DNA of 64,000 bases, taken from contig OX485803.1 of NCBI GenBank assembly GCA_950295325.1, forward strand, positions 66,913,554 through 66,977,553, given 5' to 3'. Positions 1,256 to 57,819 of this stretch are shown piece after piece; position 1 is the first letter of the stretch, and every line of letters begins with the position of its first letter. The notes below the pieces were generated by a model. That model had not been told where the DNA came from. It worked only from the letters and a program-made list of their open reading frames with translations, and did not search any database. The stretch comes from Polytrichum commune. Taxonomy: Eukaryota > Streptophyta > Polytrichopsida > Polytrichales > Polytrichaceae. The translations under genes were made by a program, and so were the position numbers.

Positions 1256-3098
1256 GTGAACAAATATTCCAAATCATTTTCTTGTATTGATGGTGAGGAG
1301 CACGAGGAGCACAAGGAGCAAGTGGGAGATCACTTGGTTACAAATGAGGAGGCAATTGAAATTTCGGCGGATAATAATGGCCGCGTTGAGAGATTTGGCA
1401 CGGATGAAAGATATCCTAAGAGGGAGCGACGTCCGCCTGGAAGGTGGTGGAAGAATCACATTCTATCCCAACACGGCGAAGAACGGGCCAATATAGTATT
1501 GTTGGATGATCCTTTGAAATTGTGTGAAGCGTTGAGATCCAAACATACAAGCAAGTAGGAGGCCGCAATGCAAAAAGAGTACGACTCGCTCATGGCCAAC
1601 GGTACGTGGAAACGGACCAAGCTTCCAAATGATCGCAAAAGTGTAGGATGCAAATGTGTGTTCCGCACCAAAAAGAATGCATTGGGTGAAATTGTTAGAT
1701 ATATAGCACGGTTAGTAGCAAAGGGATATTCTCAAGTGGCCGGAGTGGATTTTAATGAGACCTTTGCTCCTGTGGCCAATTTTATTATTAATAGATGCAT
1801 ATCCACATTAAAAACGGCCATGAGTTGGGAGATTCACCAAATTAATTTAAAAACAACGTTTTTGAATGGAAATTTATATGGATCAATTGGAGGGTTTCGT
1901 ATAAGAGGGGAAAGAAGATCTAGTGTGCAAACTCAAAAAAGCTTTGTACGGGCTCAAGCAATTGCCAAGGACATGGTACCACCGTATCGACTCATTCTTC
2001 ATTAATGAGGGTTTTTGTAGGAGCCAAACGGATCATTCGTTGTATGTCAAACAAATGGATGAATATTTGTTGCTGACAATCCTCTTCGTAGATGATTTGA
2101 TCATATTGGCAAGCAATGTAACCCAATTAAAGTGGCTCAAATCGGAGCTCGAGAAGGAATTTGAGATGAGCGATCTTGGATAATTACATTATTGCCTAGG
2201 AATGAAATTTGAGAGGAATGGAGAAGCCCGTATCATTATCATAAACCAAAAGAGCTACATCGAAGAGATCCTGAAGCATTTTAACATGGAAGAATGCAAA
2301 CCGGTTGGAACTCCGTTCGATGTGAATTCTAAATTGTTAAAACTTTCGAATGAGGAATTTTTGAATATGCAAAGGGAAATGAAAGGTGTTCCATACAAGG
2401 TTGGAGTAAGATTTCTCATGTTTGCAATGGTGGCCACGAGGGTCGATATTGCATTTGCGGTAAGTACACTGAGCCAATTCATGTCGAAGGCCGGTCCACC
2501 GCATTGGATGGCCATAAAATGCATCATGAGGTATTTGAAAGGCACTTTGGACTTCAAATTATGCCTCGGAGGCAAGGATATTTTTTTAAGAGGTTTTTGT
2601 GATGTGGGTTGGACGGGAGATGCAAATGATTGGCGACCCATCACAGGATAAGTATTTTCTGTTGGCGTTGGAGTCATTTCGTGAAAATGCAAGAAACAAC
2701 CAACCATTGCATTATCTACGATAGAGGTGGAACACATGGGTACTAGCCATTATACTAAGGAAGCGATTTGGCTTCAGCGACTTTTGGCGGATGTGGGATA
2801 TGTGCGAGGACCAACATCCATCATGTGTGATAATCAAGGATGCATAGCACTTGCAAAGAATCCCACACACCATTCTCACATTAAATATATCGATGTACAA
2901 CATCACTTCATTAGAGAGAAACTAGAAAAATAAGAGATATGTTTGAAGTATTGTCCTACAGAGGATATGATAGCGGATGTGCTAACCAAACCACTTGTAA
3001 AGGATAGGCATCAAACATTAACAAAGACAATGGGTTTAGAAGCCTTTGACTACTTGCAAAGTGAGAGTGTAAAAGGTAGAGCATTAGATTGCTCATAG
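1256..3098 (+). pseudogene. copia pol remnant: RT and RNase H
   Basis: The frame from 1256 gives the integrase-RT linker (KRERRPPGRWW), an in-frame stop at 1556-1558, then RT (AMQKEYDSLMANGTW; RLVAKGYSQVAGVDFNETFAPVA). A frameshift near 1880-1923 moves RT into another frame, which carries YGLK and the polymerase motif FVDD at 2085-2096 (usual YVDD). Stops at 2181-2183, 2649-2651, 2682-2684 and 2931-2933 interrupt the rest; the frame is otherwise kept. RNase H is seen as GFCDVGW (about 2595) and CDNQGCIALAKN (about 2827), then ADVLTKP near 2972 and the final TAG at 3096-3098. Most stops are single-base changes at conserved codons. Nonfunctional. Confidence 0.88.
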
Positions 3099-15760: not shown

Positions 15761-16945
15761 GGCTGCCACTGCAGGCAGACATGCAAATTCATTTGATGTG
15801 ATCAAAAGAGAACTTGAGAAGGCTGTAGAATTCACACAAAACATTTTCTGGGCTGCTGCTGCTGCATATTTGGTACGAAGAAAACAGTTGATGTGATGAA
15901 CATAAAGATTCACAAAGGTGTATGCATTTCTATATATATCCTGTAGGATACTACAACAGGCAGATTTTATGTTTTATAGTCCATTTGATGCATAAAGAGA
16001 TTGAAAAACCAATATGGTTTACACAAAATATTTTCTGGACTCCCACTACTGCAAAATTTGGCACAAAGAAACCATTTGATGTGATGAAACGAAAGATGCT
16101 CAGAGTTGTGTGACCTTCCATATATTTTGTACACTGCCACTGCAGTTTGAAATGCAAGAACAGTTGATGCAATTGAAAGAAGACATGGAAGACTCACAGG
16201 AATCATACAAAATATTCTCTGAGCTGCCACAGCAGGCTGATTTGAAAATGGTCAATTGTGAAGAAAGAAGACTGGGTTTACATGAATTTACATTTTCTGG
16301 CCTGCCACTGCAAAATTTAGTATTATGAGGAAGACAGTTGATTTGTTAAGAAGCAAACTTGAGCTGTCACTGGAGTTTGATTTGTAAAACGTTCGGTAGT
16401 GATGAAAAGAAAGCTCAAGCAAGTTATGAATTTACATGATGTTATTTAAAACTATTTGTTATTATTATTATTATTATTATTTTATTTGAAAAACCTTCTG
16501 GGCTGTCACAGTGTCACTGCAGATTTGGTTTGATGAAGGAAACCAGTTGATGTGATGAAAAGAAAGATTACAAAGTTCTTTGATTTTCCATATATTTTGT
16601 CCACTGCCACTTCAGGCTGATTTCAAAAACAAGTTGATGTGATGAAACATAAACTTGAAAGAGTTACATGATTTGAGTGGAATACTTTCTGAGTGGCCAC
16701 AGCAGGCTGATATGAAGTACGGTTGACTGTGATCAAAAGAAAGCTTGAGCAAGTCACATGGTTTACATGAAATATATTCTGGGCTGCCTCTGCAGATTTG
16801 GTACACTGAACGAAGCCAGTCTACGTGATGAAAAGAAAGATTTACAAAATTATGCGATTATCTGTATAATACAACTTATAGGCTGCCGCTGTAATGTGGA
16901 CATCAGAAAAGAGTTCATCTGATGAAAAGAAAACTTGAGACTCGA
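15761..16945. repeat. Minisatellite of ~90-bp units in two alternating types
   Basis: About 13 diverged units, each opening with a form of CTGCCACTGCAG. Starts lie near 15761, 15851, 15944, 16037, 16133, 16221, 16300, 16362, 16501, 16602, 16692, 16782 and 16878. One type continues GGCTGATTTGAAAA and ends near AAATATTTTCTGG. The other continues ATTTGGTAC..AAG and ends near CCATATATTTTGTACAC. Both share GTTGATGTGATGAAAAGAAA. The types mostly alternate, giving a partial ~185-bp higher-order period. An (ATT)n run interrupts a unit at 16458-16482. Frames contain stops in most units, so I see no coding. Confidence 0.85.
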
Positions 16946-18666: not shown

Positions 18667-18866
18667 NNNNNNNNNNNNNNNNNNNNNNNNNNNNNNNNNN
18701 NNNNNNNNNNNNNNNNNNNNNNNNNNNNNNNNNNNNNNNNNNNNNNNNNNNNNNNNNNNNNNNNNNNNNNNNNNNNNNNNNNNNNNNNNNNNNNNNNNNN
18801 NNNNNNNNNNNNNNNNNNNNNNNNNNNNNNNNNNNNNNNNNNNNNNNNNNNNNNNNNNNNNNNNNN
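18667..18866. other. Assembly gap (200 N)
   Basis: Exactly 200 undetermined bases, a typical scaffold placeholder; the true distance is unknown. Confidence 0.99.
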
Positions 18867-23880: not shown

Positions 23881-24450
23881 TGAGGTTGTATGTGTACCGA
23901 CCCTACCCACTCACCACCGACTCCCACGAATCACCAGATCTCACAACATCCAAGAATAGGCGAATTGCTAAAGCTGTGCATCGAAGCCACCTGACCCCAT
24001 GCGTGGCACCAGGAACAACACATAGTCCAAGGCGTGGGACACTCACCGACTCTACCTAGGCTAGCCTGGGCTAGGCTGGGCTGGGCTAGGCACCTCACCT
24101 CAATAGTAGGAGGTAGCTAGGTTGCAAATGTGGTTGGGGTAAAATGCAGTCTGTGTTTTTATTGCATTCTACAGCATGCGCGGTGGCTTGCCTTGGCTGT
24201 AGTCATTTTTTTTGGTTTTTGTTGTACAACCGTTCACCTGGTTGTCTCCCCAGCAGCTAAAAACAGCTGCAGGGCAATAAAAGTTGGGTCACGTGCCCAA
24301 CCCTTCAGGAGATTATCCTCAACAAGCGCACTTTTCATTCGTCCCACATAAAAGCCCTGAAATAGTATGCAGCCCAGAGGTTACTTATTATAGTCGATTT
24401 GTGGACAATGATAAGGGATAACTGGTCGTTACAGTAGAGGCGTCCATAAC
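23881..24450. other. GC-richer stretch without a recognised gene
   Basis: Contains short GGCTAG/GGGCTGGGCTAGG repeats near 24060-24090. AAGCCCTGAAATAGTATGCA near 24352 recurs in diverged form at about 26710 and 27108. No gene recognised. Confidence 0.45.
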
Positions 24451-24587
24451 CGATCACTCTAGGTAGTCCTTGGTATGGTGGTTTTGGGGGGTTGGAGTTG
24501 CTTGGAGTTGCTTGGCCGTCTTCCTTTACATGGCGGTGTCTCGCACGTAAGGGGCCCCGCCTCCCCTCGGTGAGGGCACGTGTTCTT

Positions 24588-25315
24588 CTTCTTTTTTCTT
24601 CTTTTTTCTTTTTTTGAGACAGAAGGCCAACCAGCCAATGCCATTCATTGAGAAGAAAAAAGGAAAACGCGCCCACACCAAGGGGAGGCGGGGCCCCTCA
24701 GACGCGAAACACCGCCACGTAAAGAGTAAGAACAACCAACACCCCCACGGACAACCCACCGGACCCACCGAGCCAAGGACCACCCCCAAACCACCAAAAG
24801 AGGCCCCAAAGGGCGCTACCTACCTAACTACAAACCTTTTTCCAGTTCCACTCCATATGTAAGTTGTGACGTCTACAAAGGACATTCCTAGCTCCCCACG
24901 TTTTATCAAATCCTTTGAGAAGAGCCATCGTGGAGAAACTACTAATTTTGATGAATTTAAGTACCCGATTCCAAGCCACCTTGGCATAAATAATAAGCGC
25001 GTCCCAAATCTTGTGTTTGACCTTAGTCTCCTGCCATTGCTCATGGTTGAACACCTTGTCGTTCCGTTCAATCCAAATGGTCCAAAGAGTAATGCCTCTA
25101 AGGAGGTGCCAAATTTTGACCTTCTTGCCGAATTTCTGTGGAATTCTTTCCCCAAACAATGCTTGTTTCCAATTGAAGGAATCGTAGTTACCCGTTCTAA
25201 TTCCACACAATTCGTGCATGATGAAAGTGGCCCATCTCCAAGCCCTTCGAGCTTGGATGCAATCCCAAATTTTATGTTTAACTGACTCGCTCGTGTTAGG
25301 GAGGCAAAAAACACA
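24588..25315 (-). mobile_element. Younger 5'-truncated LINE with 17-bp TSD
   Basis: Flanked by perfect 17-bp direct repeats TGAGGGCACGTGTTCTT (24571-24587 and 25316-25332). On the minus strand it runs from a truncated ORF2 end (starting at 25315) through a 3' untranslated region to GGCCTTCTGTCTC and an A-rich tail (24588-24619). 5' truncation, poly-A and a long target duplication are the signature of target-primed reverse transcription. The perfect duplication and an intact remaining frame suggest it is fairly recent. The same 3' tail occurs in the SINE at 32601-32743. Confidence 0.92.
24824..25315 (-). CDS. LINE ORF2 C-terminal fragment (zf-RVT region)
   Basis: Open minus-strand frame of about 163 residues from the truncation point to a stop at 24824. 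It begins with a zinc-binding pattern CVFC-x10-H-x4-C (CVFC..ESVKHKIWDC), then ARRAWRWA, and the plant LINE motif LLRGITLWTIWIERNDKVFN. These are the hallmarks of the zf-RVT domain after reverse transcriptase in plant non-LTR elements. Endonuclease and polymerase domains are absent, so no active product. The frame continues a few codons into the target duplication only by chance. A long plus-strand frame over the same bases is an antisense shadow. Confidence 0.85.
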   Translation of the reverse strand, partial: CVFCLPNTSESVKHKIWDCIQARRAWRWATFIMHELCGIRTGNYDSFNWKQALFGERIPQKFGKKVKIWHLLRGITLWTIWIERNDKVFNHEQWQETKVKHKIWDALIIYAKVAWNRVLKFIKISSFSTMALLKGFDKTWGARNVLCRRHNLHMEWNWKKVCS

Positions 25316-25411
25316 TGAGGGCACGTGTTCTTGCTTTTGGTTATTTCATTTTTGGCGTTGGTTGTTTTGGCTTTCTTTGAAAATAAATAAATAAATAAAC
25401 GATCACTCTAG

Positions 25412-25437
25412 AGATTGTGTGCCAAATATGGAGAACA
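25412..25437. other. Short spacer
   Basis: Unremarkable sequence between the older LINE duplication and the next MITE. Confidence 0.4.
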
Positions 25438-25588
25438 TAACATTACTAAGCAACTACATGCCCTAGGAATATAACCATTTGATGTTGGGAGCTCAATCAA
25501 AATCTTAGTCTCTTTGCACAAGGTTTGTGTATCCCAAGGTTATATTCTCAAAGCCCATAGAACAAACGCACACTACTTAGTAATGTTA
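25438..25588. mobile_element. 151-bp MITE, TAACATTACTAAG family, copy 1
   Basis: Perfect 13-bp inverted ends TAACATTACTAAG at 25438-25450 and 25576-25588. A second inverted pair inside (AGGAATATAACC near 25471; GGTTATATTCTC near 25543) makes a foldback. An element of the same length (151 bp) with matching ends and interior (GATGTTGGGAGCTC) lies at 62495-62645. Related copies lie at about 34886 and 50578. Noncoding. Confidence 0.82.
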
Positions 25589-25889
25589 AAAAAATAAGGC
25601 GGTGCAAATTTTTCCTATGTAGGAAGATAGAAATCAGGAGCACTACATATTTTTTGGCAATTGTATTCTTTAAGTTGAAAATATTTTGAATTTTTCAAGC
25701 CAAAAGTTGGCCGAACATATTCCCAATGTCTAGTTTGCCATATCTGCTCAATAATCCTCATTTTAGCACTCAAACCAGGGATATGTGTCATGGCAATATT
25801 GATTCCCGCCTAATCAAAATTTAGTCCCATCCTGATCAAAATTATGTCACCCTATAGGTTCCCAATGGGGGGACTATTGGAAATAGGTG
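25589..25889. other. Intergenic, nothing recognised
   Basis: AT-rich, no gene or repeat identified. Confidence 0.4.
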
Positions 25890-27744: not shown

Positions 27745-28653
27745 ACTCCTTTGGTAAGATGAATTCACAAAAGTGCAAACTCAATTTCATGATTTTACAT
27801 ACCATCTTAGCAATAGGTTCTACCAATTTCATTGGAATCATGAAATAAGCTCACTATATATATAGACGACCAATTTAATTTGAATTTTTAGCCAACTTCA
27901 CTACATTTCATGATTTGGTACACATATCCACAACTTCACATAATCAATTTCATGAACTATATAATTTCATTTCACAAAGAACAATACATCATGTATAAGA
28001 TTCTCCTAATCGCTCCTCACCACTAGTTCTACCAAAACTTTGATTGACCTCTCTTATCCAACCGCAAAAGTAGACACCACACTCCAAACATGTTTTGTGC
28101 TCTGCTCACATATTCAACACTCTTCCCACAATCAAATCCACAACCACACTTCTCTCTCAAATCCACGAGATTGAACACTCCAACTACATTGGTTTCGTGG
28201 GGTTTGCTTCAATGCACAATGTTCAAAGACCAAAGAAGAAACAACATTGCTTGCTTCCGGTTTTGAAGTATTGTAATGAAAGACCGAAGGAAAACCAACA
28301 TCAAGGCTAGAGGCTTCCAGGTATAGACAAAACAAAGAGAAACCAATGAACAACAAGAAAGCAAAGAATGCAAAACAAGGAGGTGAGAAGTTGAGAATAC
28401 AAAAACCACAAAGTGCGAAAAGATGCATGAAATTGGTCTGGAAGGTTCATTAAGTTGCTAAAGGTAAAAGTCCACTATCATGAAATTGAGGTGTGCCACA
28501 TGCCTAGTCAGTTAGAAGAATCATGATCTAATTTAGAAGGTTCATGAAATTGGTAAAACACTCTGGTAACATTGATTGGAAGGTTCATGAACAATCTTGA
28601 AACCTTCATGAAATTGAGTTTGCACTTACATGAAGTCATCTTACCAAAGGAGT
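27745..28653. mobile_element. 909-bp TIR element with ~48-bp inverted ends
   Basis: Left end ACTCCTTTGGTAAGATGAAT (27745-27792 as a whole) is repeated inversely at 28606-28653 with about four mismatches in 48, including AAGTGCAAACTCAATTTCAT in both arms. TCAATTTCATGA motifs recur within the arms, as in transposon subterminal repeats. No clear target duplication. The long minus-strand frames (28132-28428) have no recognisable domain. A truncated inverted copy lies at 31829-32545. Confidence 0.82.
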
Positions 28654-31660: not shown

Positions 31661-31828
31661 TACTGTACATCTCATATTTTATCAACAAATGTTAAATTGA
31701 TAGTTTGGACATTATAGAACATTGACAACTTTACTTGGTAGAAAATGTATTTCAATAGTAAAAAGATATAGCACCTTGTAAATCCAAATAGCAAATCACA
31801 AATAGTAGAAATTAAAATTCTTCTAGGA

Positions 31829-32545
31829 ACTTCATGACTCTTCCAAACCAATTTCAAGAATCTTTTCGCTTTGTGTGGTTTTCACATTCTCAACTTCTCA
31901 ACTTCTCACCTCCTTGTTTCACATTCTTTGCCTTCTCGTTGTTCACTGATTCCTCTTTGTTTTGTGTTTACGTGGAAGCCTCTAGCCTTGACGTCGATAT
32001 TTCTTTGGTCTTTCATTATAGTACCTCAAAGCCAAAAGTTAGGAGTGCTAGTTCTTCTCTAGTCTTTGATTATTGTGCACCGAAGCAAGCCACACAAACC
32101 CAATGTAGTTGGAGCACGCAATCTCGTGGATTTGAGAGAGTAGTGTGGTTGTGTGGATTTGATTGTGGGAAGAGTGTTGGCCGCGTGAGCAAAGCGCAAA
32201 ACATTGCTTGGAAGTGCGTTGGAGACATGGTCCAAGGTTGGATAAAAGAGGCCAATCAAAATTTTGGTAGAGCTAATGTTGGGGAACAATTAGGAGAATC
32301 TTAAACATGATGTATCATTCTTTGTGAAATAAAGCCATACAATTCATGAAATTGATTTTGTGAAGTTGGGAATATGGGTACCAAATCATGAAATTGATTG
32401 AAATTTCAAGTTAAATTGGTTATTCATATAATGAACATGGTTCATGATTCCAATGAAATTGGTAGAACCTATTGCTAAATGTGTAAAATCATGAAAATTG
32501 ATTTTTCACTTCTATGAATTCATCTTACCAAAGGAGTTATTGTCA
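31829..32545. mobile_element. Truncated inverted copy of the 909-bp TIR element
   Basis: Inverse of about 27745-28450. Shared blocks include TTTTCACATTCTCAACTTCT, CTCTAGCCTTGACGTCGATA and AATCCACAA.CACAC read inversely, and the terminal CTTACCAAAGGAGT near 32527-32540. The other end (about 200 bp) is missing. It contains a 156-codon frame (31834-32304) with Ser/Cys/Phe-rich sequence. The first copy has no equivalent single open frame, so I treat it as chance. Confidence 0.75.
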
Positions 32546-32600
32546 AACTCCAAAGTTGCAACACTTGATCTTGGAATTCTACCTATCAAGTTACACATTT

Positions 32601-32743
32601 ATTTTTTGTTTTTTTGTTTTTTGAGACAGAAGGCCGACAAGCCAGTGCCAAAGCACAAGAGACAGTTGACCACCTAGCAAGTTTTTTTTTGTCAAGTAGA
32701 GAGGAGATTTCACAGCCGGGAATCAAACCACCAACCTCTTCCC
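32601..32743 (-). mobile_element. tRNA-derived SINE (5'-truncated) with LINE-like tail
   Basis: Flanked by 12-bp direct repeats AGTTACACATTT (32589-32600, 32744-32755). On the minus strand it starts GGGAAGAGGTTGGTGGTTTG and carries GGTTTGATTCCC, close to a pol III B box (GGTTCRANNCC). It ends TTTGGCACTGGCTTGTCGGC then CTTCTGTCTCAAAAAAC with an A-rich tail. The last ~35 bp match the LINE 3' end at about 24612-24655. No A box is seen, so the head is truncated or decayed. Short length, B box, A tail and target duplication support a SINE mobilised by that LINE family. Confidence 0.75.
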
Positions 32744-33030
32744 AGTTACACATTTTGTCAACTTCAAGCATTATTACATAAAATGAATAAAGTCTAGCAC
32801 TTTAAAATAATCATAAGGAGGGGATAACCTCTGACTCAAGGCAAAAAAGTTGCTTGTTGACTTTACAGCATTTACATGATTGTTGAAGTGGAGTTACTTC
32901 CTCACTTGGAGTAAAGAGCTTACAAATGACATAGCACTTAGCAATAAGGATGGGGATGATGTCATAGAGCTGAATATCACTTTATGACCTTGTCAATTGT
33001 CCCATTTTTATTTCCATATAATTTCCCCCC

Positions 33031-57139: not shown

Positions 57140-57730
57140 TCAGCTAGAGGAGGGACCCCTAGCGCGTTTGGCTGCCGATGTAGCTTTCTGCTTCACAAGT
57201 GCGGCGAAACTCTCCCATGGCAGCTCCGGTGGGATAGGCTGCAGTTTGAGTTGCTCCGGTGAATCCTTAAAATTGTAAGGTATTTTCTTCTTGGTGTAGA
57301 AGATGCCCACATCGTAAGCACGGGCTGCCTCCTCCGGAGTTTCATAAGTTCCCAGCCATATCTTTCGTTTCTGCGATGTGGGACGAATCTCAGTGACCCA
57401 TTTATTGAGCTCCGGGCGATGGCGGACTCCCCTAAACGGTGGTGATTCGCCAGTGCCAATACCACAACTGCCGTCGTCCGTGTCCCATGACGGCGGTGCT
57501 TTGTTCAAGTCTATGTTCCGATACTTAAATGCATTACGACTGCTCGAGTCTTTGCAGCTCCCCGTTGATAAACGCATTCCCGAATTTCCCTCCTCAAAAC
57601 TGCTCTCCTCCCCCTCCCGCTTTACCACCTGGCCTTCTATTTTTACTGACTCGATACAACCACCCTTGAGTTTCTCAATCTCTGATGCAGTGATTCCCCT
57701 TCCCTGCCTGCCTGCCCGTCCCCCACACAC
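57140..57730 (-). CDS. AP2/ERF transcription factor with DLNxxP repression motif
   Basis: Open frame of 196 codons. Numbered from its first codon, a single AP2 domain spans residues 99-157. It has FRGVR (YRG element), WVTEIRP, IWLGTY and EEAARAYD, the usual landmarks of the three-stranded DNA-binding sheet and helix. The usual RPWGKW is RPELNKW, and Val at the DREB/ERF-diagnostic position 14 is followed by Pro at the position-19 equivalent, so it is neither a typical DREB nor ERF type. Residues 74-79 (DLNKAP) fit the EAR motif DLNxxP exactly, predicting TOPLESS-type repression. [16 protein letters not shown] and a basic KRARG tail follow. The first codon is GTG and a stop lies at 57749-57751. 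The only in-frame ATG before the AP2 domain is at 57575-57577 (145 residues), unless an upstream exon joins near 57715. No disabling change seen. Confidence 0.85.
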
Positions 57731-57819
57731 ACAAGAAATTCCAACAAACTAACTTTGCCAAAACGACCACCAGAGGGAATATCTCCGGTTACCAAAAATA
57801 AACTCTCCCTTCTTTTTAA

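What the first reader, a model, noticed from the sequence alone, without database searches (positions are those of the whole stretch)
24451..25411. LINE nested in LINE, both target duplications intact
An older plus-strand LINE fragment is bounded by CGATCACTCTAG. It was split by a younger minus-strand, 5'-truncated LINE bounded by a perfect 17-bp duplication (TGAGGGCACGTGTTCTT). The two share 3' untranslated sequence in opposite orientation, so they are related elements. This gives a relative-age pair from one family.
Basis: partly seen in the sequence, partly recalled or inferred. Interest (0 to 1): 0.7.

Follow-up and report, generated by a model that had tools for sequence, protein, structure and literature searches.

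The report
Nested plant LINEs plus SINE partner
A plant jumping gene (a LINE) landed backwards inside an older copy of its own family, and a small parasite element 7 kb away carries the same end sequence as that family, which suggests that it is copied by the LINE's enzyme.

Summary
Window 24451-25411 is a LINE inside a LINE in a plant genome of 407.8 Mb; the inner duplication is perfect over 17 bp, the outer over 12 bp. All 28 genome copies of the older element that I held run across the point where the window copy is split, with at most 2 inserted bases. Among the 40 best-scored of 3743 candidates, only the window joins flank, older and younger parts. The younger fragment encodes the last 163 residues of ORF2 and is 90% identical over 158 aa to a genomic copy with an open 1415-codon ORF2 matching endonuclease, reverse transcriptase and (below Pfam's cut-off) zf-RVT. 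The two copies belong to different subfamilies. The nesting is ordinary. The added result is a SINE family (1326 first-look candidates, 40 scored places) with a copy at 32601-32743. About 30 nt at its 3' end match the LINE's conserved 3' end (LINE-SINE identity 0.79, LINE-LINE 0.81). This is a plant L1/SINE pair suggesting stringent 3'-end recognition, without a conserved hairpin.

The parts
24451..24462 (+). Outer target-site duplication, left copy (CGATCACTCTAG)
   Evidence: Exact repeat of 25400-25411, found nowhere else in the window
24463..24587 (+). Older LINE, left piece of its 3' UTR; its last 17 bases (24571-24587) are the left copy of the inner duplication
   Evidence: Aligns to the younger 3' UTR, score 112 against a highest shuffle of 52; uninterrupted in 28 of 28 loci held
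24571..24587 (+). Inner target-site duplication, left copy (TGAGGGCACGTGTTCTT)
   Evidence: Exact repeat of 25316-25332
24588..25315 (-). Younger LINE, 728 bp, 5'-truncated, antisense to the older one
   Evidence: 39 other scored genome places match it, none beyond query 483-1216, the element being 488-1215; best other copy 88%
24588..24615 (-). A-rich 3' tail of the younger LINE, interrupted by G
   Evidence: Sequence
24616..24643 (-). Conserved LINE 3'-end box TGGCATTGGCTGGTTGGCCTTCTGTCTC
   Evidence: Mean pairwise identity 0.845 among 34 sequences, against 0.772 for the coding part and 0.723 for the rest of the 3' UTR; 12 of 645 upstream windows are as conserved
24827..25315 (-). C-terminal 163 codons of ORF2, beginning at the finger CX2CX9HX4C; stop codon TAG at 24824-24826
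   Evidence: 90% identical over 158 aa to residues 1258-1415 of the ORF2 in L057; finger and stop
25316..25332 (+). Inner target-site duplication, right copy
25333..25399 (+). Older LINE, right piece, ending in the AAAT-repeat tail (25380-25399)
   Evidence: Continues the left piece in genome copies; weak on its own
25400..25411 (+). Outer target-site duplication, right copy
32589..32600 (+). SINE target-site duplication, left copy (AGTTACACATTT)
   Evidence: Exact repeat of 32744-32755
32601..32743 (-). 5'-truncated SINE; B box GGTTTGATTCC at 32719-32729 (one mismatch); shared LINE 3'-end box at 32623-32650
   Evidence: 40 scored genome places, itself included, at 87-100%; full-length copies 172-175 nt before the A tail; box matches the LINE with 3 mismatches in 28
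32744..32755 (+). SINE target-site duplication, right copy

Best explanation
Two successive insertions by target-primed reverse transcription. First, a copy of an L1-type plant LINE, cut down to 192 bp of 3' UTR and tail, inserted on the plus strand and duplicated CGATCACTCTAG. Later, a 5'-truncated copy of another subfamily of the same LINE family inserted in the opposite orientation inside it and duplicated 17 bp of it. The family carries a conserved 3'-end box (majority of 34 tails: TTTTGGCGTTGGCTGTGTTGGCCTTCTGTCTC, then A's). Nearly the same box ends a tRNA-type SINE family, one copy of which lies 7 kb away, so the LINE reverse transcriptase most likely recognises this box and copies both RNAs. 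Shown: the nesting, the shared family, the shared box, the duplications. Inferred: the insertion mechanism, that the enzyme recognises the box, and that this LINE moves the SINE. The confidence below is for the nesting; I put the recognition step at about 0.65.
For: Perfect 17-bp and 12-bp duplications at the element edges. The older element is uninterrupted in 28 of 28 loci held. In 39 other scored places the younger one stops at its own edges. ORF2 match of 90% over 158 aa; Exo_endo_phos, RVT_1 and zf-RVT in L057, with an upstream 830-codon open frame matching DUF4283 (zf-RVT 21.7 bits, below Pfam's cut-off of 27.5; DUF4283 28.2, above its 27.2). Synonymous change far exceeds amino-acid change against L057 (pS 0.70, pN 0.048; dS near saturation). 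The box: 25 of 28 bases shared between the younger LINE and the SINE, 0 matches in 100 shuffles; LINE-SINE identity 0.79 over the last 31 columns, 34 by 30 rows.
Against: No conserved hairpin: joint RNAalifold energy -0.38, with different structures for LINE and SINE alone; single folds are not clearly better than shuffles (z -0.67, -1.18, -0.25). The box is not the only conserved stretch: 12 of 645 upstream windows of 28 nt are as conserved, and keeping only copies whose match reached the box favours it. The older copy has drifted in the box (GGCTTTCTTTG). No empty site was found. Only 40 of 3743 candidates were scored, and one piece of the right flank (query 1381-1488) recurs beside a LINE copy on C3. 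The right half of the older copy is weak on its own; the 12-bp outer repeat is not rare by itself. The B box with at most one mismatch arises in 287 of 20000 shuffles of the window SINE.
Confidence: 0.96

Rival explanations
1. One event with internal inversion (twin priming or template jumping) made the plus/minus/plus arrangement.
For: Both strands carry related 3' UTR in one 961-bp stretch.
Against: The inner piece has its own A-rich tail and its own 17-bp duplication, and its subfamily differs from that of the outer piece; one RNA would give one subfamily and one duplication.
Confidence: 0.02
2. 24451-25411 is a composite repeat unit that spreads as a whole.
For: None found.
Against: 78 matches from the 40 scored candidates, none but the window itself joining flank, older and younger parts (a collinear copy should rank high, but 3743 candidates were seen and most not scored); 28 of 28 older copies held are uninterrupted.
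Confidence: 0.01
3. The SINE and the LINE share the 3' box by common descent only; the LINE enzyme needs just the poly(A) tail (relaxed recognition, as the review PMC3747384 proposes for many plant L1s; passages read).
For: Both end in A-rich tails; no conserved hairpin; some LINE copies lack a perfect box.
Against: The box stays close between SINE and LINE (0.79) while the sequence just upstream is unalike: mean local score 35.9 for the last 31 nt against 8.7 for the shorter stretch of about 19 nt upstream, 34 LINE by 10 of the 30 SINE rows.
Confidence: 0.25

Closest known systems
Plant L1-clade LINEs (Exo_endo_phos + RVT_1 + zf-RVT, with a DUF4283 upstream frame)
   Same: The same domains in a genomic copy of the family (L057; zf-RVT below cut-off), 5' truncation, A-rich tail, 12-17 bp duplications
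   Different: Not placed among named plant L1 lineages; no reference LINE proteins were fetched here. That this domain set marks plant L1s is recalled
Maize LINE1-1_ZM with ZmSINE2/ZmSINE3, and sorghum relatives (PMC2774510, PMC3747384: passages read)
   Same: tRNA-type SINE sharing its 3' end with an L1-clade LINE; the LINE 3' end more conserved than the rest; A tail as in ZmSINE3
   Different: The grass 3' end is described as a hairpin with compensatory changes and a conserved CGAG 3' of the stem; here there is no CGAG in about the last 60 nt before the tail of the younger copy and no covarying stem. ZmSINE2 ends in poly(T)
Tobacco TS SINE and legume SINEs with RTE-clade LINEs (PMC3747384, PMC13295347: passages read)
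   Same: Plant SINE with a LINE-derived 3' end
   Different: Those partners are RTE-clade with (TTG)n, (GTT)n or T-run ends; here L1-type domains and A-rich tails

Membership tests
L1-clade plant LINE | Endonuclease and reverse transcriptase in one ORF2, zf-RVT finger downstream | tested here: met
   L057 ORF2: Exo_endo_phos 1.6e-12, RVT_1 1.7e-35, zf-RVT 3.2e-4 (below its curated cut-off). The window fragment itself has no Pfam match (a 42-aa piece gave one FANCF hit below cut-off), probably because it begins at the end of the finger
L1-clade plant LINE | Phylogenetic position of the reverse transcriptase in the L1 clade | not tested
   No reference reverse transcriptases were fetched; clade assigned from domains and tail, partly recalled
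LINE insertion by target-primed reverse transcription | 5' truncation, A-rich tail, target duplication at the edges | tested here: met
tRNA-type SINE | Short, many dispersed copies with target duplications | tested here: met
   40 scored places of 1326 candidates; 172-175 nt before the tail in 27 of 30 loci held; exact duplications of 9 bp or more in 21 of 30 by script, 20 after I drop L016 (no shuffle control was run)
tRNA-type SINE | Internal A and B boxes of a tRNA-type promoter | tested here: inconclusive
   GGTTCGANNCC in the three full-length copies printed, and GTTCGA somewhere in the extracted stretch, flanks included, of 23 of 30. The A box was not tested in full-length copies; GATGG there fits a motif that I recall. 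No tRNA or Rfam match in the window
Stringent-type SINE/LINE pair | Shared 3'-end sequence beyond poly(A) | tested here: met
   LINE-SINE identity 0.79 over the last 31 columns, 34 by 30 sequences; both sets were found with probes that include the box
Stringent-type SINE/LINE pair | Conserved 3' stem-loop with compensatory changes | tested here: not met
   Joint alifold -0.38 with two pairs, no supporting covariation
Stringent-type SINE/LINE pair | 3' end required for retrotransposition | not testable with these tools
   Needs a cell assay

The most novel reading that the evidence does not exclude
This genome holds an unreported plant pair of an L1-type LINE and a high-copy SINE. The LINE enzyme recognises a roughly 30-nt 3' box by primary sequence, without the covarying hairpin described for the grass pair, so stringent recognition in plant L1s would be wider than the lineage described from maize and sorghum.
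Probability: 0.4. Interest if true: 0.55.

Novelty: new member of a known kind. Interest (0 to 1): 0.4.

Why it matters
The nested pair orders two LINE subfamilies in time without any clock. The SINE/LINE pair matters more: a 2013 review counts only three SINE/LINE pairs in flowering plants (PMC3747384, passages read; legume RTE pairs came later, PMC13295347), and whether plant L1s recognise a specific RNA end or only poly(A) is an open question that this family makes testable.

Tried and rejected
Pfam on the window fragment alone gave nothing useful. Viral contigs and genome-contig searches with the protein found no relatives; the tail pattern was absent from viral contigs. Rfam: nothing; ARAGORN: nothing. 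A scan for direct repeats next to A- or T-rich runs was not specific: 26 rows in the window, 11 of them one GA microsatellite, against a mean of 3.45 in 20 simulations. Hairpin in the 3' box: not supported. A genome-wide count of GGCCTTCTGTCTCAAA did not complete. Twin priming, a composite unit, and the two copies being from one subfamily were considered and rejected.

Ten paper searches were answered. Ohshima 2012 (PMC3472496) is not held; I know it only through the 2013 review. Seibt 2020 (Angio-domain) I saw only as cited in PMC9033089 and PMC13295347; whether this SINE carries that domain was not tested.

Full report
WHAT IS THERE. The window lies in an assembly of 407.8 Mb (G000:C1:66913554-66977553). 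That it is a plant rests on the AP2 and RVT_2 matches and on recalled knowledge of these families. At 24451-25411 two direct repeats enclose each other: CGATCACTCTAG (24451, 25400) and TGAGGGCACGTGTTCTT (24571, 25316), each exact and each found only twice in the window. Between the inner copies lies a 728-bp minus-strand piece that reads, in its own sense, 163 open codons beginning with CVFCLPNTSESVKHKIWDC (CX2CX9HX4C; such a motif in 17 of 20000 shuffled proteins), a TAG stop, a 3' UTR and an A-rich tail. A frame this open appeared in 0 of 20000 base shuffles. Outside it, 125 + 67 bp form a plus-strand 3' UTR with an AAAT-repeat tail.

IS IT MORE THAN CHANCE. Exact 17-mers repeated 100-1500 bp apart: 4 in the window, 0 in 20 simulated windows; 12-mers: 38 against a mean of 8.3. 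So the inner repeat is strong by itself and the outer one is not. The outer repeat is carried by its position. In one search (query 24101-25760), 29 pieces from other places match the left half of the older copy; 19 start at query base 362 and none earlier, while the element begins at base 363. Three pieces match the right half; all start at base 1216 (first base of the right inner duplication) and end at 1274, 1298 and 1299, the element's last base being 1299. The left half aligns to the younger 3' UTR far above shuffles; the right half alone does not (98 of 1000 shuffles reach it), though it lands exactly where the left half stops.

THE NESTING TEST. In one search, 40 candidates of 3743 were scored and gave 78 matches; only the window itself joins flank, older and younger parts. 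The 39 other scored places for the younger element stay within query 483-1216 (the element is 488-1215). A collinear copy should outrank these, but unscored candidates remain, and copies of the flank alone could be missed; one right-flank piece (query 1381-1488) does recur on C3 beside a LINE copy. With the joined older element as query (197 candidates, 40 scored, 41 matches, 3 of them the window's own), all 38 other places are single matches across the join. In the 28 of them held as loci, 28 span query 110-140 with at most 2 inserted and 5 deleted bases. The best, L074, is 82% over 180 bp.

WHAT THE LINE IS. The younger element found 784 first-look candidates, of which 40 were scored; 43 matches were listed, the best other copy 88% (L002). 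L057 carries an open 1415-codon frame with Exo_endo_phos, RVT_1 and zf-RVT matches (zf-RVT below Pfam's cut-off), and an 830-codon frame upstream with DUF4283 just above its cut-off. The window fragment is 90% identical over 158 aa to its residues 1258-1415. Between these two, synonymous sites differ at 70% and non-synonymous at 4.8%; dS is near saturation, so the ratio of 0.025 is rough, but it indicates selection on the protein. In a tree of 47 3'-UTR rows (younger, older, 33 LINE copies, and 12 of the 28 loci found with the older element), YOUNG pairs with L002 and OLD with L074, both starred; 21 of 44 inner forks are open and the bootstrap had not settled.

THE SINE. The younger LINE's last 28 nt recur at 32623-32650 with 3 mismatches; 100 shuffles gave none. 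That copy is a 143-bp minus-strand insert with a 12-bp duplication. Its genome probe gave 1326 first-look candidates and 40 scored places, itself included, at 87-100%, plus one 84% partial piece. Among the 30 loci held, the window's included, 27 have the 5' end GGTCCGAG... (up to 3 substitutions) and are 172-175 nt long before the A tail; GTTCGA occurs in the extracted stretch, flanks included, of 23. Exact duplications of 9 bp or more were counted in 21; I drop L016 because the script matched a wrong 5' end, leaving 20, and no shuffle control was run. A match to GGCCTTCTGTCTC with at most 3 substitutions was found in all 30 SINE loci and all 34 LINE sequences, but both sets came from probes that include it. 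Over the last 31 columns mean identity is 0.81 LINE-LINE, 0.90 SINE-SINE and 0.79 LINE-SINE.

LINE SET AND WHAT WAS LEFT OUT. Of 39 other full places, 38 were fetched. Four (L053, L062, L071, L072) were dropped for incomplete coverage, three of them because their match stopped before the box, and one identical row was removed, leaving 34 with the younger copy. Box identity 0.845, coding 0.772, remaining 3' UTR 0.723; 12 of 645 windows of 28 nt upstream are as conserved. So the box is among the most conserved stretches but not alone, and the filter favours it somewhat.

MECHANISM. Each insertion fits target-primed reverse transcription (established for LINEs; not tested here): the nicked target primes on the A-rich RNA end, copying stops early, and the target is duplicated. 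The 3'-end box shared by LINE and SINE suggests that the LINE enzyme recognises it (stringent recognition), as proposed for maize LINE1-1 with ZmSINE2/3 (PMC2774510 and PMC3747384, passages read). Here, however, folding and covariation give no support for a hairpin, and the CGAG described for the grass 3' end is absent from about the last 60 nt before the tail of the younger copy. Relaxed recognition of poly(A) with inherited similarity remains possible.

VERDICT. Nested LINE: real, ordinary. SINE/LINE pair: a new member of a known, thinly populated kind in plants, worth a follow-up.

Noticed in passing
32601-32743 (minus), duplication 32589-32600 / 32744-32755: 5'-truncated copy of a high-copy SINE family whose 3' end matches the LINE 3' end.
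   Followed up: yes
L025 (G000:C4:15353871-15354072): A SINE with an inverted partial SINE (84%) beside it and duplication CACAGGAGGCA, apparently inserted antisense into another SINE of the family, the same self-into-self arrangement as the LINE pair.
   Followed up: partly
27745-28460 and 31824-32537: Inverted 80%-identical arms about 715 bp long, which may be the ends of a 4.8-kb inverted-repeat transposon; the SINE lies just outside.
   Followed up: no
57143-57748 (minus): Open frame with an AP2 domain (Pfam 2.2e-11), likely a plant AP2/ERF transcription factor gene.
   Followed up: no
1559-2002 (plus): Reverse transcriptase fragment of the RVT_2 family (5.6e-24), probably Ty1/copia.
   Followed up: no
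18667-18866: Run of 200 N, probably an assembly gap.
   Followed up: no
15763-16938: Cluster of diverged short direct repeats.
   Followed up: no
G000 as a whole: The seven contigs whose lengths were shown (C1-C7, 42-78 Mb) add up to about 406 of 407.8 Mb, suggesting seven chromosomes.
   Followed up: no
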